Shown: in pieces, positions 334 through 25,277 of the stretch
Layout of the letters: each line of letters begins with the position of its first letter
How positions within the stretch are numbered: the first letter of the stretch is position 1
DNA from: a virus
IMG/VR virus record: IMGVR_UViG_3300043569_000219
Span: 1-25,277 of that record
DNA: 25,277 nt
Direction: 5' to 3' (one strand)
Notes under the pieces: generated by a model
What the model saw: the letters and a program-made list of their open reading frames with translations, nothing else
The model's database searches: none
What the model was told of the DNA's origin: nothing
Program-made: the position numbers and the translations under genes

Positions 334-651
334 ATGAAAAAGTTCAGAGAATCTGTGGTTAAGGCTTTATTGCCTCACATAGTGCTTCAAGAGGCAAGTA
401 AACAGCCTATACATGGGTATGGATTGATAAGTCTGCTCCGTAGAAGGTACGGTGTTTATTTTGGCGCCAGCACAGTTTATCCAGTTTTATGTGAGTTGGA
501 GAGGCAAGGGTTGATTCAGAGCAGATGGGAGTTTAACGGTGAGAAGCCACGTAAAGTCTATATGCTTACAATGCGGGGATTGCAAAGTTTGCAACAGACA
601 TCATATGTGTTAGCCCATGTCAACAGGCTTATAGAAGTTAAAGTTAACTGA
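334..651 (+). CDS. PadR-family winged-helix transcriptional regulator
   Basis: The 105-residue protein has the PadR signature: HGYGLISLL at about 27-35, then the recognition region with STVYPVLCELERQGLI, a wing (SRWEFNGEKPRKVYMLT) and the closing RGLQSL. These are winged-helix DNA-binding proteins that usually repress their own and neighbouring genes. The usual long C-terminal dimerisation helix is short here, as in PadR-s1 type proteins. The ATG is preceded by GGTGGTGA at good spacing. It heads a two-gene plus-strand unit with the 45-residue ORF four bases downstream, pointing towards the end of the minus-strand structural operon. In an archaeal virus it would probably control gene timing. 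The target is unknown. I did not see a dyad of the ATGT-N8-ACAT type that some PadR proteins bind. Confidence 0.85.
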   Translation: MKKFRESVVKALLPHIVLQEASKQPIHGYGLISLLRRRYGVYFGASTVYPVLCELERQGLIQSRWEFNGEKPRKVYMLTMRGLQSLQQTSYVLAHVNRLIEVKVN

Positions 652-6000: not shown

Positions 6001-7659
6001 CCTGTTAAGTTCAGTGTCTAAAACGATGACCCTTCCAAGAACTAGGTCTCGGCTGTCAGCATAAGAGTAGTAAACGTTCCAGCGAACTTGAACCTTCTTG
6101 CCGTTAAGGTAGCTTTTAGGCATTATTATGAAAACGTAGCCTCGACCAAATGAACTTGCTCCACCCGAATAGCTGTCTATGCGTATAACGGATGCTGTCG
6201 GTTTGGAAAACCGTATGTCTGGATGATAAGTTGTGTCAGCTTGATGTTCACGCAACTGCCATAAGTCAATATTTTGAGGGTCATCAGCCCTAGTTGCATT
6301 TGGATTTCCATAGTAAATGTAAATCGTAACCGGGTTTGTGCTTAAATCGTCTGTAATTTGAACCCATATTGTTGCATGGTCGCCGTCCACTTTCTCCTCA
6401 ATCCAGTAGCTGAGAAGCGTAACACCATCCGAACCACAGTTACTCGACCAACAAGCTTTTCCATTTCTCCTTATGTACAGTAAATGATATGGTGGCAACG
6501 TAATGTCATATACAAAGCCCTCATAGTCTATCCATTCTCTATTGTCTTTGAAGCTGTTAACTGCAGGAGTAACATTGTTTTTGCTTATTGAAAGAACGTA
6601 AAGTCCTTTTCGTCTGTATTTTCCAAAAGCAATGGTTCCTCCTCGTCTTTTTTTAATGGTTGTTACATAACCTAATTTTAAAGCTATTTCATGAACATCG
6701 TCAGCTAACTGTTTTGAAGCAGTTCCATAAACCCACGAACTTTTCCGTTTAAAACCATCGCCAAACATAAGAGCCTCAAAAAGAATCTTCAACTGTCGCT
6801 TGCTAAGTTGTTTAAACTCTTTTGGAATAAACTTGTTTTCTGCATGACCGAATTGTTTCAAATATTCATAAAGTTGTTTGCTCCAAATTAGAATTCCATC
6901 AGGCTTTTCTTTTGCATTAAAACCACATCGCCGTGCCCACTCGAGAATAGTTTTTCTTTTTACCTTATTTCGTTGAGCGATGTGAACTTTATACCGACCC
7001 CTATCTATAAATGTTGGACCTTCAGCTATCCAAATGCCAAAGAATCTTAGCCAGTCATCCATCGGAATAGCAGTAATGTTCCTTAAAATAACTGGATTTC
7101 CAAACTTTGATTTTCTAGTTACACTAGGCAAGTAAAAGTTTTTAACTTCCTTCCCGTCCCAATCAGCATCTCGTTTATATTCAACATGTCTTGGTAATTT
7201 GCAAGCTTCTATGAATTCGAAAGGCTTCCCTTTTCTTCCATTCCAAGCTTTCCTAACAAACATACGATGTTCAGGGGTTACTAAAAGGTCAATACATGTT
7301 CCTTTTTGATGAAACATTTTTCCTTTGTAATAAAGTTTCACATAATCTGTTGGATAATGGTAACTTAACTTTCCATTTTCAGGGTTCATTGAAGCTATTT
7401 TAACCTTAAGTTTCTTTTCCACAATATCCTTAAGAAGCAAAAATCCGTTTTCAGTGAGTACTTCTGTGTCAGGAGAGTAACAGAATCGTATGTCGCCGAA
7501 ATCCGTCCTACACCTGCCGTTAAGGTAAACGTCGGGTCCGCTGTCGGTTCCGCTTCCATAGTGAGCTACAATTCTAACTTGATAGTTTGTTCCAGCGCCA
7601 GAGGCTGGGTTAATCACGTGGCTTTTGCGGTAGCCCCAGCCTTCCAGCCATGATGGCAT
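3061..7659 (-). CDS. Giant DUF2341 fibre-like virion protein with intein
   Basis: 1532 residues before splicing, about 1184 after removal of a 348-residue intein (residues 60-407). The host protein begins with a DUF2341 domain (GYRKSHVI...; TDFGDIRF interrupted by the intein; then GSDGVTLLSYWIEEKVDGD and IYIYYGNPNAT), a beta-sandwich fold found on large surface proteins. A second beta-rich, possibly lectin-like region (about 470-660) has DTSGVLDLSTFTEDY and VDVDWIKILDANG. From about 680 to 1085 come tandem short repeats around D-x-A-x-G-x-E. A Gln/Thr-rich helical stalk and a long helical C-terminus (KLRKVLIFDIV...) follow. The architecture suggests a long fibre or spike on the virion terminus. 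It lies between microgene 7663-7767 and the three small fibre-like genes. The start is preceded by TAGAAT. The fibre role is inferred from domain and context. Confidence 0.75.
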   Translation of the reverse strand: MPSWLEGWGYRKSHVINPASGAGTNYQVRIVAHYGSGTDSGPDVYLNGRCRTDFGDIRFCYSPDTEVLTENGFLLLKDIVEKKLKVKIASMNPENGKLSYHYPTDYVKLYYKGKMFHQKGTCIDLLVTPEHRMFVRKAWNGRKGKPFEFIEACKLPRHVEYKRDADWDGKEVKNFYLPSVTRKSKFGNPVILRNITAIPMDDWLRFFGIWIAEGPTFIDRGRYKVHIAQRNKVKRKTILEWARRCGFNAKEKPDGILIWSKQLYEYLKQFGHAENKFIPKEFKQLSKRQLKILFEALMFGDGFKRKSSWVYGTASKQLADDVHEIALKLGYVTTIKKRRGGTIAFGKYRRKGLYVLSISKNNVTPAVNSFKDNREWIDYEGFVYDITLPPYHLLYIRRNGKACWSSNCGSDGVTLLSYWIEEKVDGDHATIWVQITDDLSTNPVTIYIYYGNPNATRADDPQNIDLWQLREHQADTTYHPDIRFSKPTASVIRIDSYSGGASSFGRGYVFIIMPKSYLNGKKVQVRWNVYYSYADSRDLVLGRVIVLDTELNRKQTLAIGDIENLFTYIEATHYPGPLGAPAGWLGWRTDTSGVLDLSTFTEDYVTLMIRLRDSWTSQTVVVDVDWIKILDANGNVLLTFDFDKSVVMEVTGTYEDYGLYRKYVSPEPSHGSWGAEESFAYYVYVSDAGSGLDLAWRGDSFVVASDFGTGLEARLSPLFLSASDIGLTVELVIGKFFSALDSAVGSELAPRILLSLLDQATTIEQVVYIAAGILKRDYGYGAEQAYKPYAENMQSDQAVGSEVRLSPQFRFKLDSAVGIDQTSRKDMRYLKDLASTLEQAVIGLNRFDTALAQEILTLEKILKDLAVGSEVRLSPIPLSASDIAYATERSWFYWWEGLRTDQAIGTDQTAVKNMKPIIDQAVGSEVTKFGRLLKDTATATEMITYVNRTFRDQAFGAEQRISPSPLFRSDVASGLERAWFYWWEGKRIDQAVGTEKMVKKLMKQLDTASTIEQAFIGLKRADQALALEKIIHRALTTLDQSVGMENRLSPIPIKTTDLALALEKVIHRTLETLDQSIGTETSKVQLYLPPLPQIINATITSSTHLGAEAKLLTQKPAAQLATALRDFSSIQPTRTLPQQIQITKTMQTRGITAFARLIQLTLEATRSANIQQSLFIKKTFSNMPSANIQTLTRSGTAFAETLTQNINLEKLLTAKASLYKQTLTQNLLQAFHTQQTRPDTGKYASLTEIVTYAFDHAKRQTYTAPLILSQAGKLYTVTEVKLSPEQTFKTIEAMDKVTILLPMLASHVPEQYLRKTITQPIYYSYTASSSPITNIIRQTITQILLSGGEHRTKQALITPVTLTPNLILALAYKPPRPAFQSTLLTLPILHGLGWMKEYRTFIYEVIYEILCGIFSLPAYITTAYKYLKQLQDLALKFRYVNIGDYILHTDHNTIVEACQIFLKFAETLVNDLFKGDVDLTSKIEEMRTATSKLRKVLIFDIVTARDHNLTVECINKIREFIKLVRHKIGLNP
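4405..5620 (-). repeat. Tandem DxAxGxE repeats in the fibre-like gene
   Basis: More than 20 degenerate units of about 14-18 residues around D-(Q/S/T)-A-x-G-x-E (DQAVGSEV, DSAVGIDQ, DLAVGSEV, DQAIGTDQ, DQAFGAEQ, DQSVGMEN, DQSIGTET). Some copies are nearly identical in DNA, for example the stretch around CCCACCAGTAGAACCATG at about 4710 and again about 264 bp on, and a ~70-bp unit at about 4434 and again about 99 bp on. Recent local duplication is therefore visible. Confidence 0.8.
4821..4832. repeat. Dispersed palindrome TTACATATGTAA
   Basis: Perfect copy inside the DUF2341 gene (codons for T-Y-V), far from any promoter. Confidence 0.7.
6439..7482 (-). other. Intein with LAGLIDADG (DOD) homing endonuclease in DUF2341 protein
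   Basis: 348 codons in frame. Block A starts at Cys 60 (CYSPDTEVLTENG). Block B is CIDLLVTPEHRMFV with the Thr..His pair. The two LAGLIDADG-type helices are WLRFFGIWIAEG and LFEALMFGDGF, supplying the acidic Glu and Asp. Block F is YEGFVYDITLPPYHLLYI, and block G ends CWSSN followed by Cys as the +1 extein residue. Removing it joins DIRF to CGSDGVTLLSYW, restoring the DUF2341 motif. The penultimate residue is Ser rather than the usual His, known in some active inteins but worth noting. The endonuclease acids are present, so it may still be mobile. Confidence 0.9.
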
Positions 7660-9584: not shown

Positions 9585-12500
9585 CTATTCTGGATATACT
9601 AGGGCTATCTTAAGCTTTCTCGCCCTTCTAAGTGTGGCGATTGACTTGTAAAACTGTATTTCGTAGTCGTCTAAGCCCCATTCCCTTAAGGCGTCAAGCT
9701 CTTTGGCGTAGGCTGTTGCATCTATTGTTCCAGCTACGTAGGCGTTTATAAGGTCGGTCACGTATCTTCCAACTTCATCTTTTACTGGTTTGATGCGTAT
9801 GTATTGTGTCCACATTTCCTTAAGAACTTCTTTGGTTGGCTGGTCTATTGGAAGTGCATCTATCATTTTGTACATTGTGCCGAGGGCGAATTCTCTGGCT
9901 TTGGGGCTGTATTCAGCCAGCATTGTCATTCTGTCAACGTCGCCTATAAGCTCTGTCCATGCTACTCTGTGTTTTTCAAGTCTTGTCGTTTGAAGCATGA
10001 ACTCTATTTCTTTCTGGGTGTAGCCGAGTGTTTCTCTCACTTCATCCAACACTTTTTTGAAGTTTTCCTCTGTAATCATGAATCTTACGTATAGCTGTTC
10101 AGCCCTTGAAACGTATTTTTTAACTTCGTCTATGACTGGTTTGAGGTCTATGTATTTCGCCCAGACCTTCTGCCATTCTGTGGGAATGTTTCTTGCTTTA
10201 ACCACGTCGTCGAAGAATTCTCTGGCTTCAGGTATGATTTCGCATATTGTAGCCAGCATTGAAGGTGTAGGTATGTACTCTTGCCTTGACGCTTTGAAGT
10301 CTAAAATTTGCTCTTCAAGTTGAACCGACTGGATTATGAATTCTACCTCTCTCTGTGTGAAGCCGTACTGTGGAAGTGTTTTAATGTAGTTGTCTAGGGT
10401 TTCTTTGGTTATGGCGCCATATCTAAAAGCTCTTACGTAGGTGGATAGCAGAGCTTTTGCGTCTGCTTTTATTGGTTTAACAGCTACGTATTGCATCCAC
10501 AGGTCTGCCCATTCGGCAGGCACAGCCCTCTCTTTTAATGTTTCTTTAACCAGTTCCATTGGGATGGCAACGTATTCGCTTAGGGTTGCTAGGGTTGACG
10601 GTGTTGGCAGATATTCTGCTTTGGTTGATTTTGCCTCAAGAATTTGCTCTTCTATGTTTATGCTTTCAATTATGAAGTTGATTTCCTTCTCTGTGAAGCC
10701 GTATTGTGGTAGAGTTTTGATGAAGTTTTCAAGTTTATCTTTTGTGACTACACCGTAACGGAAGCCTCTTACATATGTAGATAGTAGGGCTTTAGCGTCT
10801 GATTTGATTGGTCTGACCGCTATGTAAGTTAGCCATATTTTCTGCCATGCTTCGTCAAGTCCTCTTTCAACAAGGACTTGCTTAACAAGCTCTGTGTCTA
10901 ATGTCATGTATTCGCTTAGTGTTGCTAGAGTTGATGGTGTTGGCAGGTATTCGGCTACTGTGCTTCTTCTTGCTATGCCGTACATTAGCTCCATTACTTG
11001 TTTGATGAACTCTTCCTCGCCGTCTGTGAGTTTCCCTTTCTCCTTTACATATGTAACAAGTTTGCTGATGTCGTCTTTTTCAACGACTCCGTATGCGACA
11101 CGGTACATTACCCAGCCTAGCCATCTTTGAGTCCACATGCGTATTCTGCGTATGGTGAATACGTCTCGCCATATTTTGAGGGCTTCAACGTAGGGCTTAT
11201 AGTAGTCTTCGACAAATTTTAGTTTAAGCTGGTCTGGAAGCTTTACACCTGTAATGGCTTCATAATCTGTGGCGTAGAAATCGTTTATGCTTTCGATTAC
11301 TTGTGTAAGTTTTGACTTGTATTCGTTGTAGTCCCAGATTATGAATTCTTGATAGGCTGTGCTTATGTCCTTCTGGATTTCTCTTAGGATGTCTAGGCTT
11401 CTGTCCATTAAGGCTCTAAGCTCTAAAAGTTTCCTTTCAGGCGGTAGGTACATTACTGGAATGTTTACCCAGCCTGTTGTCCATTTCATCTGTGCTATGT
11501 CGAAGTAGGCTACTTGGAAGCTTGTTTTGATGAAGCCTGCAAGCATTGTTTCTAGTGCTTTTATGTCGTAGAATCCTTCTTTGAATAATCCCATGAAGCC
11601 TGTTCTTAGGGCTGTGCGTTCTTCTGTTAAAGCGTTCATGGCTTCGGCTACGGCTGTTATTGGAACCCAGTCTGGATGTAAGCCTGTTGCAAGTATCGTT
11701 CTTGAGAAGTTGGTTAAGTCCATTTTGACTTCTGATGCTGGAGTGTTTTCTAGGATTTTCGTTGCGAACTCTTTAACTGTTGATTGGTAGGTTACCTGTT
11801 TGGCGCTTAGAAGTTCATATATGCCCCATTTACAAATCCATCTTTGCTCTATTTTGGTCGGGACTTCTGCCAAAGTGTCTATGTATATTAGGTTGTCTGA
11901 TGGGAAGTCTTTAATCCAACTATTATGAACCACCACATTTGAAACTAGGAAGTGGTCGTTTTCTACCTGAAGGTCGTACACGGAGCCTTCATAGTCTTCA
12001 AACTCAACTTCAGATACTGGAACTAGTAGATAGTCCTCTACTCGTTTGAGGGGTAGATTGCTTTCTGAGAAGTCTATAAATTCACTTAGCCTTCTAACCA
12101 GTTTATTCCTATGGTCATGAACCATATACCGTATCATATATCCATTTGCTTTTTCTCTATAGCTGACTCCAGCAATGTAGCCTAACCTTAAAAGCAGAAG
12201 TTGTAGCTGTAATGCTAAAGTTTTAGATACAGTATATAGGTATGCTTCATTAGAGTTATTACTGATGCATCCATCTCCAACAATATACCCTTTAATGAAC
12301 GCTTTTACTATGTTTCTATCTTTGTGATGTAGTATGAAGTCAGGTATTTTCTTATTTCTCGCACCTTTCTCAAACCAATCGATAAATGCTCTTGCAAGTA
12401 TTGGAGACTTAATGTATATTTCAGCTATTCCTCTATGCCTTGAAACGACTGACTTATAGCCAAGTTTGTTGATTATTGCACACACTTTGTTTATTATTTC

Positions 12501-15500
12501 TTCGTTTTCTTCACTTTGGCTAACACTAATGTACTTATCTTGTGAGTGCCCTTCGGCTACATAGAAGCCCATAAACCATGCTACATCCTCATCTAGAGGT
12601 AGAGTAAGTCTTCTAACATCTGTGTATTTCTTCAGATATTTAGCTAGGTCAAGCTCTCTAGTGTAAACATCCCCCCTTAAAATCGGTACAAGCAGGTAAT
12701 CTCCTTCATGGTAGTGAGGGGGATGAGTTTTAGGTGCGGGCTCTATTTCATCAGCATGTTTATAGACTATTTTAACAGGAACTAGTTTGAAGTTATCTTT
12801 ACCATTTTCTATAATCCACTTCCTAGCCAACCTCATAACAGGTATGACATGTTCAGGAGTAACTTTCAGCTCTAAAATATCATGCGCCTTTATTTTTACT
12901 GCTTTTCCTCTATAGTACTTCCTGTAAGTGGCTTCAACCGTACCACCTAATAACGTGTGGTCGCCTACCTCATATGTTTCTATCGGCTTGTTATCACCAA
13001 GTATTAACTCACCTTCAGGGACACATCCTCGGAAGTAGTCATGCCATTTCATGTATGTTTTGAATGCGTTTAGCAGTTTGTCGGCTTGGAAGTTCATGTT
13101 TATGGGTGCAACTGGCATTAGTGCGCCTATTGATTTTACTTCCTTTTCCACGTCTGCCCTTTCTGCGTCTGAAAGCGTTGTCCATAGTAGTCCGCTTATG
13201 CCTCTGACTGTGAATTGCCATAGGCGTTCTGGTGGTGGATAGCGGAATCTTAGGAAGTAGTATAGTGCACCTACGTCTTTTTCCATTCCTGTGGCTAGGT
13301 ATAGCTTTTGGAAGTCTTCTATTGAGGCGAATATGTCTCTAACCATCATTGTTGCAACGTCTGAGCTTGAAGGTAGCTGGTACATTAGGGACAGGGGTAT
13401 TGCCCGTTCGGTTCCGAACCTGTCGGTTACTTTTATGTTGAATTCTTTAGCTGTTTTGAAGTATAGGTCTATTACGTAGTCTGAGTAGCCGTATAAACTC
13501 ATGAAGTATCTTGCTTTTCCAATCATCTCTTTAAACTTTTCATGGGGCAAGGTTCTCCTTGTTGCTTCCACTAGGACTTCTACTGTTGGCAGTTCAATGG
13601 GCATGGTGTTTCTGAACAGGCTGTTTATGCATCGGACTATTGGCTGTGTTATCCATATGGCTATTCCGTAGAAGAATCCTCTCATGAGTTCGTCTGGGTA
13701 CTGTCTGAACTCGCTTGCCAGATGCTTTATTACGTTGCCGAATTTTAAAGGTATCTCTACGGTTGTTTCTCCGCCAGCCCCTAGAATCTTTATGGCTACG
13801 TTGGGCAGAAGCTTCCAGTCGCTAGTCATTTCGCCAATCCAGAATAATGCTTGGCTAATCATTCTGAAGGTGAACTGTGTTGAAACAATTACGCCGAACA
13901 GCCCTAGGGCTTCAGCCATTTCACCTTGGCTTTTTCCAGCCGCTATCCTTTGAACCATGCCTGTTACATAGTCTTTAAGTCCTGTGAATACTGCTTTGAA
14001 AAGGTCTAGTATTGGCGCAATTAGGATGTCACGTATTCCGCCTATCAGTTTTCCACCGATGTCTATTAATCCTTTAAAGCTTGCTGACAGTAGCGAAACC
14101 AGACCTTGACCTAGTGCAAGTATTCCGTTCCAAAGCCATTCTCCAAACTTTGTTATTGCTGAGGTTATCCAGTTCCAGACTCCTTGAAGAGCGTTCCAAA
14201 GCCAGTTTAATCCGCCCATTATGGGCTGAACTATGTTTTTACTGAACCAGCCTACTGGGTCTGCTATTAAAGCTTTAACTCCGTCTACAATTGCGCTGAA
14301 AAAGTTGCCTATTGCTGTTAGTCCACCTTTCAGCCAGTCTGGAAGGGCTTGCCATATTACTGCACCTAGGTTTTGTATTGCGTTTACAATCCATTGTCCC
14401 GCTTGGATTATGCCGTTGATGAAGCCCATTAATGCGTTGCCTATTACTTGGAAGCCTGCGCCGACTTTGGCGGCTACGTCTTGGAATGCGCCTACTAGGA
14501 AGTTCCAGAGGTCTGTTATGCCTTTTCCTATGCCTGCTAAACCGTCCATGATTGTTTTAGCTACTGTTCCAAGCGTGTCTGATACGGCTTTTATGAAGCT
14601 TGATATAGCGTCAAGTATTGTTTTGCCTATTGCTCCAAATGCGTCTATGATTGTTTTAGCTATTCCGCTTAGTGTTGCGGAAATTGTATTAATCATGCCT
14701 GTTAAGGCGTTCATTATTGAGGATGCTATTCCGCTGAATATGTTTGAGAGAGTGGAGATTGCGTTTGTTATTGTGTTCATTATGGTGGTTGCAAATCCTG
14801 CTATTGCGTTGGAAATTGTTGATATGACTCCTGAAATAGCGTTCATTATTGATGTGGCGACTGAAGTTAATGCGTTGGAAATTGTCGCTATAGCTCCTGA
14901 AATAGCAGTTGATATTGCAGACAAAATGCCACTTATGACGTTTGATATTGTGGATATGGCTCCGCTTATAATATTGGTTAACGTTGACACGATTCCTGAA
15001 ATTGCATCTGTAATTTTCTTTGCAACTGTTCCAATAATGTCTGTTAGTGTTTTGATGGAGCCAGCTATGAAGTCGGTTATCGTCTTGCCTATGATGCTGA
15101 GGATGTCTGAAACTGTCTTTATTATTCCACTTATCGAGTCAAGAATCGACTTTCCAACGGAGCTTAAAGCGTCTGTGATGGCTTTTATCGCTCCAGTTAT
15201 GGCGTTTGAAAGCGTAGATAGAACGCTTGTTATCCCCTTTGAAATTGTGGATACTGCGTCTGAAATGAATTTTGAGATTGTTGAGGTTATGCTTTTTATC
15301 GCATCGGTGATGGCGCTTCCTATGGATGTTACAACTCCCTTTATGGCAGGAAGTACTGTCCCACTCAGGAAGTCGCTTACAGCTTTTATTGCAGGCACAA
15401 TAATGTCTTGTATGAACGTCTGTATTCCAGAGACAATCCATGAGGAGACAGAGTTAAACACGCTTATGAACCAGTCTCTTAGTTGACCAAGAGGGTCTAG

Positions 15501-15713
15501 AACGCCTGCGCTTGCTGAGGCAATTATGTCTAGGCTTATCACTTGGGTTATTTGGTCTTCTCTAACGATTTGGCATCCGCTTACACATGTAACAACGAAA
15601 AGTTCAGGGGATGGTTGGCGTAGTGTGTTGGCTAGTGCGTCTGTCAACAGTTTGCTTGCTTGTTTTAGTTCTTCTGGGCTGAAGTCTAGCAGGAGTTGTT
15701 CTTCTTCGTTCAT
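9585..15713 (-). CDS. 2042-residue giant virion protein with intein, hendecad helices and C-terminal repeats
   Basis: 2042 residues, 1674 after loss of a 368-residue intein (897-1264). In order: an acidic N-terminus (MNEEEQLLLDFSPEEL); about 85-390, some 300 residues of Ile/Ser/Ala-rich amphipathic helix with 11/22-residue periodicity (units like ISGILSAISTAISGAIATIS); a Trp/Gly-rich hydrophobic region (about 420-600, e.g. GGLNWLWNALQGVWNWITSA); a helical region around 680-880; the intein; a helical region; and at least four ~112-residue repeats ending in the C-terminus (PTPSTLATLSEY ... LPQYGF ... EEQIL). In a tailed virus this would be called a tape measure. Given the filamentous-type MCPs here, a terminal or fibre protein, or a membrane-active protein, fits better. 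GAGGCTGAT precedes the ATG, which overlaps the upstream stop by four bases. Confidence 0.75.
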   Translation of the reverse strand: MNEEEQLLLDFSPEELKQASKLLTDALANTLRQPSPELFVVTCVSGCQIVREDQITQVISLDIIASASAGVLDPLGQLRDWFISVFNSVSSWIVSGIQTFIQDIIVPAIKAVSDFLSGTVLPAIKGVVTSIGSAITDAIKSITSTISKFISDAVSTISKGITSVLSTLSNAITGAIKAITDALSSVGKSILDSISGIIKTVSDILSIIGKTITDFIAGSIKTLTDIIGTVAKKITDAISGIVSTLTNIISGAISTISNVISGILSAISTAISGAIATISNALTSVATSIMNAISGVISTISNAIAGFATTIMNTITNAISTLSNIFSGIASSIMNALTGMINTISATLSGIAKTIIDAFGAIGKTILDAISSFIKAVSDTLGTVAKTIMDGLAGIGKGITDLWNFLVGAFQDVAAKVGAGFQVIGNALMGFINGIIQAGQWIVNAIQNLGAVIWQALPDWLKGGLTAIGNFFSAIVDGVKALIADPVGWFSKNIVQPIMGGLNWLWNALQGVWNWITSAITKFGEWLWNGILALGQGLVSLLSASFKGLIDIGGKLIGGIRDILIAPILDLFKAVFTGLKDYVTGMVQRIAAGKSQGEMAEALGLFGVIVSTQFTFRMISQALFWIGEMTSDWKLLPNVAIKILGAGGETTVEIPLKFGNVIKHLASEFRQYPDELMRGFFYGIAIWITQPIVRCINSLFRNTMPIELPTVEVLVEATRRTLPHEKFKEMIGKARYFMSLYGYSDYVIDLYFKTAKEFNIKVTDRFGTERAIPLSLMYQLPSSSDVATMMVRDIFASIEDFQKLYLATGMEKDVGALYYFLRFRYPPPERLWQFTVRGISGLLWTTLSDAERADVEKEVKSIGALMPVAPINMNFQADKLLNAFKTYMKWHDYFRGCVPEGELILGDNKPIETYEVGDHTLLGGTVEATYRKYYRGKAVKIKAHDILELKVTPEHVIPVMRLARKWIIENGKDNFKLVPVKIVYKHADEIEPAPKTHPPHYHEGDYLLVPILRGDVYTRELDLAKYLKKYTDVRRLTLPLDEDVAWFMGFYVAEGHSQDKYISVSQSEENEEIINKVCAIINKLGYKSVVSRHRGIAEIYIKSPILARAFIDWFEKGARNKKIPDFILHHKDRNIVKAFIKGYIVGDGCISNNSNEAYLYTVSKTLALQLQLLLLRLGYIAGVSYREKANGYMIRYMVHDHRNKLVRRLSEFIDFSESNLPLKRVEDYLLVPVSEVEFEDYEGSVYDLQVENDHFLVSNVVVHNSWIKDFPSDNLIYIDTLAEVPTKIEQRWICKWGIYELLSAKQVTYQSTVKEFATKILENTPASEVKMDLTNFSRTILATGLHPDWVPITAVAEAMNALTEERTALRTGFMGLFKEGFYDIKALETMLAGFIKTSFQVAYFDIAQMKWTTGWVNIPVMYLPPERKLLELRALMDRSLDILREIQKDISTAYQEFIIWDYNEYKSKLTQVIESINDFYATDYEAITGVKLPDQLKLKFVEDYYKPYVEALKIWRDVFTIRRIRMWTQRWLGWVMYRVAYGVVEKDDISKLVTYVKEKGKLTDGEEEFIKQVMELMYGIARRSTVAEYLPTPSTLATLSEYMTLDTELVKQVLVERGLDEAWQKIWLTYIAVRPIKSDAKALLSTYVRGFRYGVVTKDKLENFIKTLPQYGFTEKEINFIIESINIEEQILEAKSTKAEYLPTPSTLATLSEYVAIPMELVKETLKERAVPAEWADLWMQYVAVKPIKADAKALLSTYVRAFRYGAITKETLDNYIKTLPQYGFTQREVEFIIQSVQLEEQILDFKASRQEYIPTPSMLATICEIIPEAREFFDDVVKARNIPTEWQKVWAKYIDLKPVIDEVKKYVSRAEQLYVRFMITEENFKKVLDEVRETLGYTQKEIEFMLQTTRLEKHRVAWTELIGDVDRMTMLAEYSPKAREFALGTMYKMIDALPIDQPTKEVLKEMWTQYIRIKPVKDEVGRYVTDLINAYVAGTIDATAYAKELDALREWGLDDYEIQFYKSIATLRRARKLKIALVYPE
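9600..10960 (-). repeat. Four ~112-residue repeats in the giant protein C-terminus
   Basis: The units share the order EYLPTPSTLATLSEY, a Trp and Y(I/V)AV(R/K)PIK, DAKALLSTYVRxFRYG, a T-K-E-x-L-x-x-x-I segment, LPQYGFT..E(I/V).FII and EEQIL. The first two are near identical at about 10960-10620 and 10614-10277. The third and fourth have diverged strongly (IPTPSMLATICE..., then TMLAEYSP...). The motif 'yvr.yr.G.it.e.le..l...Gyt..ei.f.i' also occurs in helical structural proteins of other viruses. Confidence 0.8.
10769..10780. repeat. Dispersed palindrome TTACATATGTAG
   Basis: Inside repeat 1 of the giant gene. The matching codons of repeat 2 read CTTACGTAGG, so the palindrome arose or was kept in only one copy. 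Confidence 0.65.
11045..11056. repeat. Dispersed palindrome TTACATATGTAA
   Basis: Perfect copy in the giant gene, 276 bp from the previous one. Confidence 0.7.
11922..13025 (-). other. Intein with LAGLIDADG (DOD) homing endonuclease in giant protein
   Basis: 368 codons in frame. Block A is CVPEGELILGDNKPIETYEV starting at Cys 897. Block B is ILELKVTPEHVIPV. The LAGLIDADG-type helices are VAWFMGFYVAEGHS and VKAFIKGYIVGDGCIS with acidic Glu and Asp. Block F is YEGSVYDLQVENDHFLVS, and block G is NVVVHN with Ser as +1 residue. All splice residues (Cys1, TxxH, His-Asn, Ser+1) are canonical, so splicing should be active. Splicing joins KWHDYFRG to SWIKDFPSD. Confidence 0.93.
14520..15460 (-). repeat. 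Hendecad (11/22-residue) helical repeat coding region
   Basis: About 300 codons encode imperfect 22-residue units (66 bp), for example ISGIVSTLTNIISGAISTIS, ISGILSAISTAISGAIATIS and LTSVATSIMNAISGVISTIS. Ser/Thr/Ala/Gly fill one face and Ile/Leu the other. This predicts very long, weakly polar amphipathic helices. Confidence 0.75.
15581..15592. repeat. Dispersed palindrome TTACACATGTAA
   Basis: Near the start of the giant gene (codons for V-T-C-V), with CA at the centre. Confidence 0.7.
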
Positions 15714-18779: not shown

Positions 18780-19094
18780 ATGAGTCTTCAATCTAAAATT
18801 AGAGTGTTGATTGCAGGCATTGAAGACACGAATAGCCGCATTAACGTAGCGTCTACAATCAGTTACCTTTACGACTTGTACAGCAATGGCAGAATAAGTG
18901 AGGAGCAGGTTAGAGATGACCTTTACGATGTTTTGTTTGAGGTTATGCGTTTTCTTAAGCCTAACTTGGTTGAGGATGCGTTGAAGAAGGTTACAGAAGA
19001 TTTGGTTGAAGACTTTGTTAGAACCTTCAAGCTTGAAAGTGCAAGTAAAAGGGTTATGGCTAAGTACAGGGCGGGTAGCGGTTTAGCGTTTTAG
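18780..19094 (+). CDS. 104-residue helical protein, unknown
   Basis: The ATG follows the RHH stop directly (TAAATG). The protein is all-helical: QSKIRVLIAGIEDTNSRIN, ASTISYLYDLYSNGRI, SEEQVRDDLYDVLFEVMRFL, VEDALKKVTEDLVEDFVRTF, with a basic C-terminus (SKRVMAKYRAGSGLAF). It is third in the MCP2-RHH unit and ends in a 12-base convergent overlap with the membrane protein gene. The size and helix content would fit a capsid-associated or DNA-binding protein. I recognise no family. Confidence 0.6.
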   Translation: MSLQSKIRVLIAGIEDTNSRINVASTISYLYDLYSNGRISEEQVRDDLYDVLFEVMRFLKPNLVEDALKKVTEDLVEDFVRTFKLESASKRVMAKYRAGSGLAF

Positions 19095-19301
19095 GCTTCT
19101 AGCGTTTTTAATTTTCATTGTCAGCCAGTATGCCGCTGTGATGAGGGGCACTATGTAGAGGATTCCAAAGGGGTTTATGCAGAAGAAGTAGAAGAACCAT
19201 ATGTTGACAGGTGTAGGTGTTGGCAGAGTTGCAAGGATTGCTGGGATTACAAAGTTTATGGTTAAGATGAAGATTATGAAGGGTTTAGATTCTTTTTTCA
19301 T
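19083..19301 (-). CDS. Two-helix membrane protein
   Basis: 72 residues. A first transmembrane helix runs from about 8 to 25 (FIIFILTINFVIPAIL), a Pro/Thr loop follows (LPTPTPVN), then aromatic-rich WFFYFFCINPFGILYIVPLI and TAAYWLTMKI, and a basic C-terminus (KNARSLKR). The positive ends and Pro-Thr loop are typical of small viral membrane proteins, which in enveloped filamentous viruses may sit in the envelope or in the host membrane at exit. The gene is preceded by GAGGT and lies four bases after the resolvase gene. The function is unknown. Confidence 0.55.
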   Translation of the reverse strand: MKKESKPFIIFILTINFVIPAILATLPTPTPVNIWFFYFFCINPFGILYIVPLITAAYWLTMKIKNARSLKR

Positions 19302-21448: not shown

Positions 21449-22285
21449 TTACTCACTTATCTTCAGCCACTCCTGTTCCTCTAGTGCACGCTCGTACACT
21501 TCCTCTATGGTGTCTAGTGCAGTCATTCCATACCACCATGTGTATGGTAGTCCATGGTACCATGGTCTGTACATGTGTATATTGGTCAGTATTTTGTTTG
21601 CTACGGCTAAGGTTATCAGCCTTCTTAACGCATGCTCTGGAACCTCTTTAAGTTTTGTCTTATGTATGTATACTGCTCTGCCTTCGTCGAATGTGATTTT
21701 ATAGTATTCTTTTAGCATGTCTCTTATCCTTGCTGATGCTTCTCTTGTTTCGGGGTAATATTGTTGTCCTAGTCCTTGGTCGTGGTGTTCTATAGCCCAT
21801 ATTGGTTTTACATGTGTAATTAGGCGTTTGGCTCCTTGGAGTGCCTGTTCTTCGTATCCTTCTATGTCGATTTTTGCGAGGTGGCATTCTTCTATTAGGG
21901 TGTCTAATGTTTTAACTTGTACTGTTACGGTTTTTCTTCCATGTCTTGGGTATAGTGTTGTGTTCGTGTCATCCATGTACAATGTTGAGGTTGATGGGGT
22001 GGCTCCTACTGCGTACGGGTGTACGGTTACATTGTTTATGTTGTTGAGTCTCAGGTTTTGCTCCAGTACTTTGATTGATTCTGGATTCGGTTCTATGGCG
22101 TGGACGTGCTTGCATGTTTTAGCCAGCCTTACCGTGTAGAATCCTACGTGCGCCCCGATGTCTGCGAATACCGTATCCTTTGTCGCCAAGGACTGCAGAG
22201 TCTTGAGCAGGTTTTTCTCCCTTGGCATTATTCCCCTGATGTTCTGGAACCATTTAAGTCCGTCCCAGCTTGTGTATACTGTCAT
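21449..22285 (-). CDS. FkbM-family SAM-dependent methyltransferase
   Basis: 278 residues. Motif I is FADIGAHVGFYTVRL (about 40-54), followed by the acidic loop VHAIEPNPESIKVLEQNL (62-79), then NNVTVHPYAVGA, TVQVKTLDTLIEE, and LAKIDIEGYEEQALQGAKRL, the KiDiEG-E motif that defines FkbM enzymes. They O-methylate sugars or similar groups. The C-terminal ~100 residues are helical with an aromatic, Tyr/Trp-rich stretch (MYRPWYHGLPYTWW). GGTGAT precedes the ATG, which overlaps the glycosyltransferase stop (ATGA). Pairing with a glycosyltransferase suggests methyl-capping of a glycan on the virion or host surface. Two dispersed palindromes (21570, 21808) lie inside the gene. Confidence 0.88.
   Translation of the reverse strand: MTVYTSWDGLKWFQNIRGIMPREKNLLKTLQSLATKDTVFADIGAHVGFYTVRLAKTCKHVHAIEPNPESIKVLEQNLRLNNINNVTVHPYAVGATPSTSTLYMDDTNTTLYPRHGRKTVTVQVKTLDTLIEECHLAKIDIEGYEEQALQGAKRLITHVKPIWAIEHHDQGLGQQYYPETREASARIRDMLKEYYKITFDEGRAVYIHKTKLKEVPEHALRRLITLAVANKILTNIHMYRPWYHGLPYTWWYGMTALDTIEEVYERALEEQEWLKISE
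21569..21580. repeat. Dispersed palindrome GTACATGTGTAT
   Basis: Core TACATGTGTA inside the FkbM gene, five bases after a separate 14-bp palindrome CCATGGTACCATGG. Confidence 0.6.
21808..21819. repeat. Dispersed palindrome TTACATGTGTAA
   Basis: Inside the FkbM gene (codons for I-T-H-V). Confidence 0.7.
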
Positions 22286-22914
22286 CTCATCACCCGCTCT
22301 CCTCTTATGTAGTGCACTATGTTTACGTTATATATGCTGTGGTGTATTGGATTCCGTAGTGTGCGGTAGTTTTCTTTTATTATCTTGTGTATGTTTATGT
22401 CGACTGGGTATGGGTTCACTATTTTTTCGGCTAGTTGGTCAACTATTTTCTCGGCTAGTCTTCTGCTTAATCCGAAGTTTGTGCTTTCAAAGAATGTTCT
22501 TATGTGTTTTCTCCAGTCTTCTGTTGGCGGAAGCTCTCTTGGTATGACTGGTATACCTATCTGGAGGTAGTCCCATTCTTTCTGTCTAATCTTGTATACT
22601 GCTATGTCGCTTAGTATTATGTCGCTGTCGACGTGTATGAAGTGTGTTAGATTGTACGCTAGAAAGTGTTTCACCAGAATTTTTATCCCTTCAAGTATGC
22701 TTACGTCGCTTTCCCATCTTGCATGTCTGCTTTCATAGTTTTGCCAAGGTGTTCTAGTATCATATTCTAGAACCTCTACGTTTACGTTTATGGTTTCGCT
22801 TCTTGAAACGTCTCTTGCTATCACTATTTTGTGGGGGTTAAGCTTTTTTATGGCTTGCATCCACTCTTTCAGGTATCTTGTTCCACCTACTGTTGTACAC
22901 GTGTAAAACATCAT
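22282..22914 (-). CDS. GT-A fold glycosyltransferase with DxD motif
   Basis: About 210 residues from the ATG at 22914. A GTG at 22947 is in frame, but AGAGGAT lies at better distance for 22914. It starts with a GT-A strand (MMFYTCTTVGGTRYL), then KIVIARDVSRSE, and the key metal and nucleotide-sugar motif HFIHVDSDIIL (Asp 96, Asp 98). Later come GIPVIPRELPPTEDW and STNFGLSRRLAEKIVD, which resemble acceptor-side motifs of GT2-like enzymes. The C-terminus includes DINIHKIIKENYRTLRN. It probably adds a sugar that the FkbM enzyme then methylates. It overlaps the upstream Myb-like gene by 77 bases and the FkbM gene by four. Confidence 0.75.
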   Translation of the reverse strand: MMFYTCTTVGGTRYLKEWMQAIKKLNPHKIVIARDVSRSETINVNVEVLEYDTRTPWQNYESRHARWESDVSILEGIKILVKHFLAYNLTHFIHVDSDIILSDIAVYKIRQKEWDYLQIGIPVIPRELPPTEDWRKHIRTFFESTNFGLSRRLAEKIVDQLAEKIVNPYPVDINIHKIIKENYRTLRNPIHHSIYNVNIVHYIRGERVMR

Positions 22915-23125
22915 AGGGGCATAATCCTCTAAACGTGAATGTTTCACCTAGAAGAGGGTTTTCTGCTGGGGGGTTCCCTCGCTGATTCAACATACGGATT
23001 TCTTTAAGTAAAGCCATTTCATATTTCGATAGCTTGTAGTTTCTTTCCCATAGTTTCTTTAAAAGAGCAAGCTCATCATTAGTCCACTTGTGTCTAACTC
23101 TTAGAGTAATGTTTTCTGTTTCCAA
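22838..23125 (-). CDS. Myb/SANT-like helix-turn-helix protein
   Basis: 95 residues. The core RHKWTNDELALLKKLWERNY and KYEMALLKEIRMLNQRG matches the Trp-anchored first helices of a Myb/SANT or related HTH domain. The second half (NPLLGETFTFRGLCPYDVL ...) is less clear and is encoded over the start of the glycosyltransferase in another frame, so part of it may be a passenger of the overlap. It overlaps the upstream 110-residue gene by 25 bases. It may be a small DNA-binding regulator of the early operon. The HTH assignment is by eye. Confidence 0.55.
   Translation of the reverse strand: METENITLRVRHKWTNDELALLKKLWERNYKLSKYEMALLKEIRMLNQRGNPPAENPLLGETFTFRGLCPYDVLHVYNSRWNKIPERVDASHKKA
22895..22906. 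repeat. Dispersed palindrome GTACACGTGTAA
   Basis: Core TACACGTGTA, the only fully symmetric CG-centred copy, near the start of the DxD glycosyltransferase and inside the Myb-like gene. Confidence 0.65.
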
Positions 23126-23433
23126 TCTTTTGCCACCTCTCTATACATATCTTGTAGTCTTCTCCTCTTTCTTAAAACATCTTCACTTGGTAAATACTCA
23201 TGTTGACTCTGAATCTTTTGTCTTGCCCTTCTAATTGTTTCTGGTGGTGTTGCTCTGTATAGGAAGGCTCGTCTGAATTCTTTTGGTATGTTGATTTTGT
23301 CGAATATTTCCCAGAATAGGAGCATTAGGAGTTTGTCGTTGTTGCGGGCTTCTGGGTAGTGGGCTAGAATATAGCGTATTCCAGTTTCAACTCTGGAAAG
23401 TTTTTCTTTAAGCTGTTCTGGCTGTTCTGTCAT
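23101..23433 (-). CDS. 110-residue helical protein, unknown
   Basis: Helical throughout: PEQLKEKLSRVETGIRYIL, NNDKLLMLLFWEIFDKINIP, then a basic region TPPETIRRARQKIQSQHEYL and SEDVLRKRRRLQDMYREVAK. The middle 'tpeTIrRaRqkiq...lP...v...R' pattern is common in small virus proteins of unknown function and could bind nucleic acid. It lies between the 210-residue protein and the Myb-like gene in the RHH-ParB operon. I do not know its function. Confidence 0.6.
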   Translation of the reverse strand: MTEQPEQLKEKLSRVETGIRYILAHYPEARNNDKLLMLLFWEIFDKINIPKEFRRAFLYRATPPETIRRARQKIQSQHEYLPSEDVLRKRRRLQDMYREVAKDWKQKTLL

Positions 23434-23454: not shown

Positions 23455-24087
23455 TTAGATTTGTCTTATTCTTAGGTCTAGGAGTTTGTCGTCTACTGTT
23501 CTTTTAACCTCTTTCATTAGGACTAAGCCGTTTGTGGCTCTGTTGAGCCATGCTATAAAGTGGGTGTCATGTATTATTTTCCAGTCTAGGCTGGCTGTTT
23601 TTCTTGGGTATACGCTGGCTGATTCTAGTGGAAGGTGTCTTCTAGGTATGTTTTTTATCCAGCCAGTTAGTCTTCGCTTTTTATAGTAGTTGAAAATGAA
23701 TTTTTCAGCATCGCTTCCTTTTGTTATGGGTCTGTTTTTGAATGTGTATAGGTTGTTGCCGTATTTTCGGTCTGTGATGTGTAGGGTTAATGTTTTAATC
23801 CAGCATTCGTTTATGTCGTATTTTCTGGCTAACTCAACAGCTAAGGGGATGCTGAAATGTTCTGTCTGGGTTTTCTTGTAGGAGTAGTTTATGAACATGA
23901 AGGGGGTTTGGTATACTTTTACGAGTGCCCATTTGTATGGCATTTCTTCTCTGGGTTTTTTGCTTTCTGTTGCTGAAACTGCTTTCAGTTCATATATGTA
24001 TGGGTCTAGTTTGTCGCCGACAAGCTCTTCAATCAGAAAAAGGCTGGTGGTTGGGATGACTGCTTGTGGAAAGATAAGTTCACTCAA
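23455..24087 (-). CDS. 210-residue protein, unknown
   Basis: The ATG overlaps the ParB-like gene end by eight bases. The N-terminus is MSELIFPQAVIPTTSLFLIE. The body is alpha/beta with YKWALVKVYQTPFMFINYSY, SIPLAVELARKYDINECWIK, LTLHITDRKYGNN and RRLTGWIKNIPRRHLPLESA, and it ends in a basic helical stretch (KEVKRTVDDKLLDLRIRQI). It is basic and aromatic-rich, suggesting nucleic-acid binding. Close coupling with ParB suggests a functional link, for instance as a partition partner, but no ParA Walker motif is present. I do not recognise a family. Confidence 0.55.
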   Translation of the reverse strand: MSELIFPQAVIPTTSLFLIEELVGDKLDPYIYELKAVSATESKKPREEMPYKWALVKVYQTPFMFINYSYKKTQTEHFSIPLAVELARKYDINECWIKTLTLHITDRKYGNNLYTFKNRPITKGSDAEKFIFNYYKKRRLTGWIKNIPRRHLPLESASVYPRKTASLDWKIIHDTHFIAWLNRATNGLVLMKEVKRTVDDKLLDLRIRQI

Positions 24088-24859
24088 GGTAATCCCTCAG
24101 AATCTGTATTATGGCTTCTTGGATGCTTACGCCCCACTCGTCTGCTTGGGCTTTAAGCTTTGGCATCAAGTCAACTGGAATAGGAACTAGAACTGTTATT
24201 CCTCTAGCTCTCTCAAGGGCTTCCCTAGCTGGTAACGTTGGCTCTTGTTCAATCAATCGGGTTGCACGTTGAATCTCCATAACGCTTGGAGGTTCGGGCA
24301 TTTTAGAGGCTTCAACTGCAAGTTCAGTCTTCTTCTCCTCTGGAATTGGAGCACGTTTAACTTCCAATAGCCCAGCTAAAGGCAATTTCTCAGGGGTGGC
24401 GATAATCGCCACCTTCTTTATCCTTTCAGATTCTTCATAGAAACCCAGCCAATCGTCGAGTGTCTTTCTTGGGATTCCCGTTTCTTCGGCTAAGGCTGAT
24501 ACTGTCCATCCTAACTCCCTCATCTTTGCGACCCATCTTCCACGTTCGTAGTAGCTTAGGTCTTCTCGTTGTAGGTTTTCTATTCCCATTTCAATTATTT
24601 CGTAGTCTTTGCTGATTTCTTTTCTTTCTATAATTGGAACTTCTGTTAGTCCCGCTCTTTTTGCGGCTAGGAGTCGGCGTTCTCCAGTTATTAGTTTGTA
24701 TGTTCCGTCTCCTAATGGTTTGACTACTAGTGGGTAGAGTATGCCTCGTTTTTTGATGCTTTCTGTTAACGTTTGGAGTTTTTCTTCGTCAAAGGTTGTT
24801 CTGACACGGAAGTTGTTGGTTTTGATTTTGTCTATTGGGACTTTTTTAATTTCGCTCAT
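24080..24859 (-). CDS. parB: ParB/Spo0J-like protein with C-terminal RHH-like domain
   Basis: 259 residues. The N-terminal ParB domain has the RGILYPLVVKP box (38-48), the CTP-binding YKLITGERRLLAAKRAGL with GERR at 59-62, and MGIENLQREDLSYYERG (91-107). The HTH domain is GWTVSALAEETGIPRKTLDD (117-136). After a linker, 221-259 (ITVLVPIPVDLMPKLKAQ, then WGVSIQEAIIQILRDYL) reads as strand-helix-helix, a ribbon-helix-helix-like end in place of the usual ParB dimerisation domain. ParB proteins bind palindromic parS sites and spread along DNA. The ATG overlaps the stop of the RHH gene (ATGA), so the two are co-translated. No ParA is visible here. It may serve partition, transcription control or genome organisation. 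Confidence 0.85.
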   Translation of the reverse strand: MSEIKKVPIDKIKTNNFRVRTTFDEEKLQTLTESIKKRGILYPLVVKPLGDGTYKLITGERRLLAAKRAGLTEVPIIERKEISKDYEIIEMGIENLQREDLSYYERGRWVAKMRELGWTVSALAEETGIPRKTLDDWLGFYEESERIKKVAIIATPEKLPLAGLLEVKRAPIPEEKKTELAVEASKMPEPPSVMEIQRATRLIEQEPTLPAREALERARGITVLVPIPVDLMPKLKAQADEWGVSIQEAIIQILRDYLE

Positions 24860-25005
24860 GTTTTTGCCCCCTCTTCAAAGTATGTTTTGGCTATTGCTTC
24901 TCTTACTAGGCTACTTATGCTTTTGCCTTTTTGTCGGCTTAGGTCGGCTAGTTTTTGGTATGTTTCAACTTCAATCATGGCTGTTACTTGCACCTTCTTT
25001 CCCAT
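24856..25005 (-). CDS. 49-residue CopG/RHH regulator heading the ParB operon
   Basis: The ATG at 25005 opens 49 codons to TGA at 24856, overlapping the ParB-like start (ATGA). The protein reads MGKKVQVTAMIEVETYQKLA, then DLSRQKGKSISSLVREAIAK and TYFEEGAKT: a clear ribbon-helix-helix with strand (VQVTAMIEV), helix 1 (ETYQKLADLSRQKG) and helix 2 (SISSLVREAIAKTY). GGTG lies six bases before the ATG. Four 8-bp repeats lie between TATA box and start, typical of RHH partition regulators that bind tandem iterons. A role as autoregulator of this operon and DNA-binding partner of the ParB-like protein is likely. Confidence 0.8.
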   Translation of the reverse strand: MGKKVQVTAMIEVETYQKLADLSRQKGKSISSLVREAIAKTYFEEGAKT

Positions 25006-25007
25006 AT

Positions 25008-25036
25008 TTAACACCTAAACAGTTAAACACTTAAAC
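25008..25036 (-). repeat. Four 8-bp iterons (TAAAC core) at the RHH-ParB promoter
   Basis: On the plus strand TTAAC, TAAAC, TAAAC and TAAAC start at 25008, 25016, 25024 and 25032, exactly 8 bp apart. On the minus strand they read as ANKGTTTA units. The array lies between the TATA box and the start codon, so a bound protein would block transcription. A fifth TAAAC at 25042 is part of the TATA region. Confidence 0.65.
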
Positions 25037-25037
25037 C

Positions 25038-25052
25038 TTTATAAACCTTTCC
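25038..25052 (-). promoter_or_regulatory. BRE/TATA promoter of the RHH-ParB operon
   Basis: Minus-strand GGAAAGG followed by TTTATAAA is a textbook archaeal BRE plus TATA box. The expected start is near 25016, inside the iteron array, with an ~11-nt leader holding GGTG before the ATG at 25005. Confidence 0.65.
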
Positions 25053-25061
25053 ACAGAACCT

Positions 25062-25277
25062 TCAAGATATGCGTTTTCCTCTGGCTTCTATCCTTAGGCT
25101 TTTGAGGTAGCATAGCGGGCTGTCTTTGTGTTTACACATGTATGATAGACTGCATTCTACTGGTTTTCCGTTTACAACGTTGCCAGTTAAAAGTTTCTGG
25201 TTTACTAGGGTTATGCGAGCTTCTAGATGGGATGCTGGACAGAAAGTTTTAACCTCATAATAATGAAGCTCACTCAT
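25062..25277 (-). CDS. Cys-rich small protein at the right edge (possibly partial)
   Basis: 71 residues start with an ATG formed by the last three bases of the window, so an upstream extension beyond the window cannot be excluded. It reads MSELHYYEVKTFCPASHLEA, then KPVECSLSYMCKHKDSPLCY with Cys at about 13, 42, 48 and 56, plus His, suggesting a small zinc- or metal-binding fold. It ends 56 bases before the RHH-ParB start, with a full promoter in between. One palindrome (25132-25143) lies inside. The function is unknown. Confidence 0.5.
   Translation of the reverse strand: MSELHYYEVKTFCPASHLEARITLVNQKLLTGNVVNGKPVECSLSYMCKHKDSPLCYLKSLRIEARGKRIS
25132..25143. repeat. Dispersed palindrome TTACACATGTAT
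   Basis: Inside the Cys-rich gene, about 80-90 bp upstream of the RHH-ParB promoter. Confidence 0.6.

What the first reader, a model, noticed from the sequence alone, without database searches (positions are those of the whole stretch)
24080..25052. RHH-ParB cassette with promoter iterons and no ParA
A 49-residue RHH protein is translationally coupled (ATGA) to a ParB-like protein, and exactly 8-bp-spaced iterons lie between TATA box and start. RHH partition proteins such as ParG and omega bind tandem short repeats of this kind. The combination of an RHH centromere-binding-type protein with a full ParB in one operon, without a ParA ATPase nearby, is unusual for a virus and may be a new segregation or transcription-silencing system.
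Basis: partly seen in the sequence, partly recalled or inferred. Interest (0 to 1): 0.7.

Follow-up and report, generated by a model that had tools for sequence, protein, structure and literature searches.

The report
Orphan ParB operon in adnavirus
A thread-like archaeal virus carries a small self-controlled operon whose second gene makes a DNA clamp of the ParB kind without its usual motor partner, and that gene seems to contain the clamp's own loading site, a pattern also found at the same place in other lone ParB genes.

Summary
A 49-aa ribbon-helix-helix (RHH) gene (25005-24856, minus strand) overlaps by ATGA a 259-aa ParB gene (24859-24080). Three GTTTA units plus a degenerate fourth, 8 bp apart, lie between TATA box and start codon. 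There is no ParA in the record, but the record is trimmed at both ends.

New here: (1) the ParB itself ends in an RHH-like domain, as some ParBs of archaeal genomes do; (2) it keeps the CTP-pocket motifs but lacks the ParA-binding motif; (3) a third gene (ORF210) follows; (4) the virus is an adnavirus, its sister L007 lacks the module, and 12 other adnavirus records have no ParB; (5) the strongest palindrome of the window (24395-24413) lies inside parB. Lone parB genes of viruses and archaea repeatedly carry a palindrome at this same spot, the loop codons after the HTH; where the canonical parS core occurs in these genes, it is exactly there.

Best reading: an F55/SvtR-like RHH autorepressor controls an orphan ParB clamp that loads at a site in its own gene. 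That it organises or silences viral DNA, rather than partitioning it, is inferred. RHH plus iterons is ordinary for archaeal viruses; the ParB with its internal site is the interesting part.

The parts
24856..25005 (-). RHH protein, 49 aa (ATG 25005; alternative GTG 25014); putative autorepressor
   Evidence: RHH_3 E=2.2e-5, above gathering score
24080..24859 (-). ParB-like protein, 259 aa: ParB_N + HTH region + RHH-like C-terminus
   Evidence: ParB_N 9e-24, HTH_23 5e-5; TIGR00180 8.6e-29; AlphaFold2 mean pLDDT 87.5; Foldseek best hits ParB-CTP/Noc, then KorB
24569..24853 (-). ParB-CTPase fold (ParB_N): GERRLLAA (residue 59 on) and ENLQREDL (residue 94 on) kept; no ParA-binding motif; Y42 at the position usually Q
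24083..24202 (-). RHH-like C-terminal domain of the ParB (residues 220-259)
   Evidence: Pfam CopG_antitoxin E=0.0017, below cut-off; two terminal helices after an extended stretch in the model; relative L125 scores RHH_1 2.4e-6, above cut-off, at the same place
24395..24413 (.). 19-bp perfect palindrome GGTGGCGAT-A-ATCGCCACC inside parB (codons 149-155), candidate parS-like loading site
   Evidence: Strongest palindrome of the window; only copy at <=3 mismatches; same position as palindromes in other orphan parB genes
25005..25036 (-). 8-bp-spaced iterons GTTTAAGT GTTTAACT GTTTAGGT GTTAAATA, putative RHH operator
25038..25045 (-). TATA box TTTATAAA, about 36 nt before the ATG (leaderless or short-leader transcript expected)
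   Evidence: Read directly
23455..24087 (-). ORF210, third gene, overlaps the parB end by 8 nt (TTG start); no recognisable family
   Evidence: No Pfam/NCBIfam hit, one weak PHROG hit E=0.03; no relative found; single-sequence model pLDDT 34, uninformative
25062..25277 (-). Flanking gene (71 aa), 82% identical in sister virus L007; upstream border of the module
23101..23433 (-). Flanking gene (110 aa), 65% identical in L007; downstream border of the module

Best explanation
This is an accessory operon, RHH-ParB-ORF210, of an adnavirus whose sister probably infects Bathyarchaeia. The 49-aa RHH dimer most likely binds the 8-bp iterons between TATA box and start site and represses its own operon (inferred). 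The second gene encodes an orphan ParB, here a dimer held by an RHH-like C-terminus, which most likely binds CTP, loads at the palindrome inside its own gene, closes into a clamp and slides over neighbouring viral DNA (inferred from conserved motifs, fold and site position). Without a ParA-binding motif or a ParA gene, its likeliest role is regulation or organisation of viral DNA, as for KorB, VirB or Noc, with partition through a host ATPase as a lesser possibility. Shown: gene layout, domains, motifs, absence from relatives, palindrome and its recurrence. Inferred: binding, CTP use, repression and purpose.
For: Gene layout, iterons and TATA. ParB_N with GERR and ENLQR boxes, fold closest to CTP-bound ParB and Noc, KorB also found. 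ParA-binding motif absent, ParA family absent. RHH tail, seen also in archaeal ParBs L125, L126, L128, L330. Palindrome: strongest of the window; dinucleotide shuffles of the parB sequence give arms of 9 or more in 18 of 3000, synonymous shuffles of this gene give one at the cluster position in 38 of 4000. Perfect palindromes centred 150-209 nt after the EN motif: 9 + 5 of 112 orphan parB genes against 0.47 expected; later sets 2 of 43 against 0.19 and 3 of 32 against 0.21; 316 control genes show no clear excess at arm 8. All canonical TTTCACGTGAAA cores found inside parB genes lie at +178 to +184. F55 precedent for tandem-repeat binding.
Against: No binding or CTP data. Iterons are only about p=0.01 in an AT-rich promoter. 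The window's own palindrome is p about 0.01 given its protein sequence, because VAIIAT codons are palindrome-prone. Only about 5-13% of orphan parB genes show the linker palindrome. Box I has tyrosine where most have glutamine. A single site suits a centromere as well as a regulator; KorB works through several operators (from memory). ORF210 has no assigned role. The record is trimmed.
Confidence: 0.5

Rival explanations
1. Partition module that borrows a host ParA/SegA-type ATPase: ParB on a single centromere (the palindrome) keeps viral copies in dividing cells during a carrier state; the RHH is operon regulator or second centromere binder.
For: One palindromic site in the window fits a centromere; AAA_31 proteins occur in all 14 control genomes, archaea included.
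Against: ParA-binding motif (L/F/I)G(K/R)G(L/F/I) absent, and that motif tracks with ParA neighbours (PMC12704722); no ParA in window or L007; the sister lacks the module.
Confidence: 0.2
2. The ParB acts on host DNA or defence (host-takeover or anti-silencing factor); the internal palindrome only autoregulates.
For: Accessory position between conserved genes, different gene in the sister; ORF210 unrelated to anything known.
Against: No host target known; the internal site suggests action on viral DNA.
Confidence: 0.1
3. The RHH is an antitoxin-like repressor and ORF210 a toxin or effector; ParB is a DNA-binding passenger in a stability cassette.
For: The ParB tail scores weakly with CopG_antitoxin and BrnA antitoxin, and the RHH with a RelB-type antitoxin.
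Against: All these scores are below curated cut-offs; ORF210 has no toxin signature.
Confidence: 0.05
4. The palindrome is a chance, coding-driven or hairpin feature and the iterons are AT-rich promoter sequence; only two ordinary DNA-binding genes are present.
For: Each feature alone is only p about 0.01; a terminator scan lists the palindrome as a possible plus-strand hairpin.
Against: The position matches independent ParBs, including those with canonical parS cores there; both later sets show the same excess.
Confidence: 0.15

Closest known systems
Orphan ParB-CTPase clamps (Noc, VirB, KorB; survey PMC12704722)
   Same: ParB_N with CTP boxes, HTH region, palindromic site, no ParA partner gene
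   Different: RHH-like C-terminus instead of the usual dimerisation domain; HTH not recognised by PF17762; coupled to an RHH gene; in an adnavirus
F55 (SSV1), SvtR (SIRV1), AvtR (AFV6) RHH regulators
   Same: Small RHH; F55 binds tandem repeats overlapping promoter elements, its own promoter included
   Different: Repeat sequence differs (GTTTA-type, not ATAGATAG); those are not described with a ParB; sequence relation not shown
pLP712 (Lactococcus lactis) parB/parS
   Same: A single parS inside the parB gene, as stated for the imaging construct (PMC6156202)
   Different: Plasmid; site position and sequence not compared here
pNOB8 AspA-ParB-ParA and SegAB (archaeal segregation)
   Same: Archaeal mobile-element ParB; SegB is RHH (from memory)
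   Different: No ParA/SegA here; pNOB8-like ParB-N is only a weak fold match
RHH-like/ParB operon in an integrated element, L361 (genome G690, class of G011, which was reached through a Methanomassiliicoccus-labelled contig)
   Same: Same gene order, 4-nt overlap, palindrome at +184 in parB
   Different: Upstream RHH only weakly supported (Pfam 0.17); ParB 464 aa without RHH tail; D5-type primase and integrase follow

Membership tests
ParABS partition system | ParA Walker ATPase gene with parB | tested here: not met
   None in the record; record trimmed, so beyond its ends untested
ParABS partition system | ParA-binding motif in ParB | tested here: not met
   No (L/F/I)G(K/R)G(L/F/I) in P0001
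ParABS partition system | Centromere site near parB | tested here: inconclusive
   Palindrome 24395-24413 present, binding untested
Orphan ParB-CTPase clamp | ParB_N fold with GxRR and EN boxes | tested here: met
Orphan ParB-CTPase clamp | Central HTH domain (PF17762) | tested here: inconclusive
   HTH_23 5e-5, just below cut-off; PF17762 not hit; helices predicted there
Orphan ParB-CTPase clamp | C-terminal dimerisation domain | tested here: inconclusive
   RHH-like tail predicted instead
Orphan ParB-CTPase clamp | CTP binding, clamp closure, sliding | not testable with these tools
   Needs biochemistry
Archaeal-virus RHH regulator (F55/SvtR/AvtR kind) | RHH fold | tested here: met
   RHH_3 above cut-off
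Archaeal-virus RHH regulator (F55/SvtR/AvtR kind) | Binds repeats in its own promoter | not testable with these tools
   Repeats present at the right place
Adnaviria | Adnavirus major capsid proteins | tested here: met
   PHROG 7510 3.8e-15 and 3.6e-8; 34-35% identity to rudivirus coat proteins

The most novel reading that the evidence does not exclude
Orphan parB genes of viruses and archaea carry their own clamp-loading site in the codons of one fixed loop, right after the HTH, so that the gene is a self-contained nucleation module that can move between genomes. The adnavirus operon is such a module with an added RHH switch and RHH dimerisation domain.
Probability: 0.45. Interest if true: 0.75.

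Novelty: new variant of a known kind. Interest (0 to 1): 0.52.

Why it matters
It puts a ParB-type clamp in the filamentous adnaviruses, where 13 other records tested show none, and adds an RHH-tailed ParB architecture shared with archaeal genomes. The fixed intragenic palindrome, if bound, gives a way to read the likely DNA target of an orphan ParB from its own gene, which would make a large group of uncharacterised ParBs testable.

Tried and rejected
Single-protein scans for relatives of P0001, the MCP and ORF210 in viral contigs found none. ORF210 had no relative in genome contigs or phages and no usable model. Canonical parS with up to 3 mismatches: 4 hits against 0.93 expected, none perfect and none in the module; not pursued. 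No RHH tail and no RHH neighbour in the 80 viral ParBs (by eye; an HMM covered these and L225-L304). Tails of L131-L133 look RHH-like by eye but were not picked up by the HMM, so not counted. Host CRISPR spacers gave no convincing match to the window. A ribosomal protein S12 written from memory served only to reach archaeal genome handles. Sigma-70 promoter scans are not relevant to archaea. Terminal repeats were not found in the record itself.

Full report
Observation. The module at 24080-25005 on the minus strand is as described: a 49-aa RHH gene (RHH_3 E=2.2e-5) overlapping a 259-aa ParB-like gene (ParB_N E=9.2e-24) by ATGA. Upstream, a TATA box TTTATAAA (25045-25038) is followed by GTTTAAGT GTTTAACT GTTTAGGT and a degenerate GTTAAATA, starts 8 bp apart. 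The array is unique in the window. Its strength is modest: about 1% of shuffles of this short AT-rich stretch match it, and 59 of 200 shuffles of the whole 25 kb match it somewhere. A third gene, ORF210 (24087-23455), overlaps the parB end, so the operon probably has three genes; it has no recognisable relative.

Which virus. The record is a whole IMG/VR entry of 25,277 bases. Two coat-protein-like genes match PHROG 7510 and the first matches rudivirus coat proteins, so this is an adnavirus. An alignment-based scan found a sister, L007 (coat protein 67% identical), with the same gene order over most of its 8.8 kb. There the 71-aa and 110-aa genes that flank the module are separated only by a 64-aa ORF: RHH, ParB and ORF210 are absent. 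The module is therefore accessory. L007 carries a six-repeat CRISPR-like array; arrays with repeats two or three mismatches away were found in two of 257 genomes of the class of G005, a Hecatellales (Bathyarchaeia) genome, which suggests the host class. No ParB_N was found in L007, L008, L009 or ten named rudi-, lipothrix- and ungulavirus records. The record begins at a stop codon and ends at a start codon, so it was probably trimmed; a homologue of its first ORF lies inverted at the far end of L007, which suggests terminal inverted repeats and a few missing kilobases.

The proteins. The ParB keeps both nucleotide-pocket motifs (GERR, ENLQR; invariant columns), with tyrosine 42 where most have glutamine. 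It lacks the ParA-binding motif. AlphaFold2 gives mean pLDDT 87.5 and Foldseek ranks CTP-bound M. xanthus ParB and Noc first, KorB lower. The last 40 residues look like an RHH: weak by Pfam in this protein (0.0017, below cut-off), but above cut-off in relative L125, with similar tails in L126, L128 and L330 (these tails were in the seed of that HMM, so their scores are circular, and the L125 Pfam score is the independent support). ParB-like proteins matched P0001 in 57 of 257 genomes of that class.

RHH-ParB pairing elsewhere. Among 279 ParB frames scanned, one other ParB has an RHH-like gene upstream with the same 4-nt overlap, L311/L361, in an integrated element with a D5-type primase and an integrase. 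That RHH was in the HMM seed and has only Pfam E=0.17, so the pair is a lead, not proof. RHH next to ParB is rare in what I could see.

The palindrome inside parB. Looking for a loading site, I found that the only perfect palindrome of the window with arms of 8 bp or more (spacer 0-3) is GGTGGCGATAATCGCCACC at 24395-24413, inside parB. Other orphan parB genes show the same thing. I first inspected 20 loci and the 80 viral genes, then counted 114 de-duplicated genes: arm>=8 in 29 against 9.45 in synonymous shuffles. The position clusters: in bins 150-179 and 180-209 nt after the EN motif 9 and 5 genes, against 0.27 and 0.20 expected. This range was chosen after seeing those data. I wrote it down before fetching new loci and tested two further sets with similar genes removed: 2 of 43 viral genes against 0.185 expected, 3 of 32 archaeal genes against 0.21. 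Pooled, 5 against 0.395 gives Poisson p about 6e-5. The rate is lower than in the first set, so the first set overstates it. 316 other genes of the same loci show no clear excess at arm 8 (27; shuffles 13-29); at arms 9 and 10 they are somewhat above their shuffles (13 against 3-9; 6 against 1-3), so some excess of long palindromes is general.

What the position is. In the 18 cluster cases inspected the palindrome falls in codons between the last HTH helix and the next helix, judged from the aligned motifs; in the window it is codons 149-155, at the start of a low-confidence loop of the model. Every canonical parS core TTTCACGTGAAA found inside these parB genes (six entries, of which L243 is L151 fetched again) lies at +178 to +184. 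That is the best argument that the spot is a parS position. For the window's own gene the evidence is weaker: given its protein sequence, 38 of 4000 synonymous shuffles produce such a palindrome there. A parS inside a parB gene has a precedent in plasmid pLP712 (PMC6156202); my few text searches found no description of a fixed position, which is weak evidence of novelty.

Mechanism. The RHH most likely represses its own operon through the iterons, as F55 does on tandem repeats (PMC5569661). The ParB most likely loads at the internal palindrome and slides. Purpose is open: regulation or organisation of viral DNA is preferred because the ParA-binding motif and a ParA gene are missing; partition through a host ATPase remains possible. 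Binding, CTP use and repression are untested.

Verdict. Real feature; RHH plus iterons is ordinary for archaeal viruses; ParB in an adnavirus with an RHH tail and an internal parS-like palindrome is a new variant of the orphan ParB kind.

Noticed in passing
L007:8350-8775: Six-copy CRISPR-like array (37-nt repeat, 36-42-nt spacers) at the contig end, where the glycosyltransferase gene is cut short; near-identical repeats in genomes G250 and G252 of the class of G005. No convincing spacer match to the window.
   Followed up: partly
3061-7659 and 9585-15713 (minus): Both giant ORFs hold intein-like insertions (CYSPDTEVLTENG..., CVPEGELILGDNK...) at local dips in GC.
   Followed up: no
1-3 and 25275-25277: The record starts at a stop codon and ends at a start codon, so it was probably trimmed at gene borders; ORF 1-198 has an inverted homologue at the other end of L007, which suggests terminal inverted repeats.
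   Followed up: partly
19076-19108: Another 8-bp-period tandem repeat (TAGCGTTT x4) at the convergent ends of two genes.
   Followed up: no
334-651 (plus): PadR-family regulator (Pfam 8e-16) at the other end of the record.
   Followed up: no
21449-22947 (minus): FkbM-like methyltransferase and glycosyltransferase-like genes (by eye) absent from the sister L007.
   Followed up: no
L239, L250, L263, L296: Other parB genes with strong palindromes: a 26-bp perfect one at +168 in L239, and GTTTCGCATGCGAAAC far from the cluster position in L250, L263 and L296.
   Followed up: partly
L361:5609-5626: Inverted repeat ACTAACG-TTTT-CGTTAGT between divergent genes just upstream of the RHH-like/ParB pair, a possible operator.
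   Followed up: no
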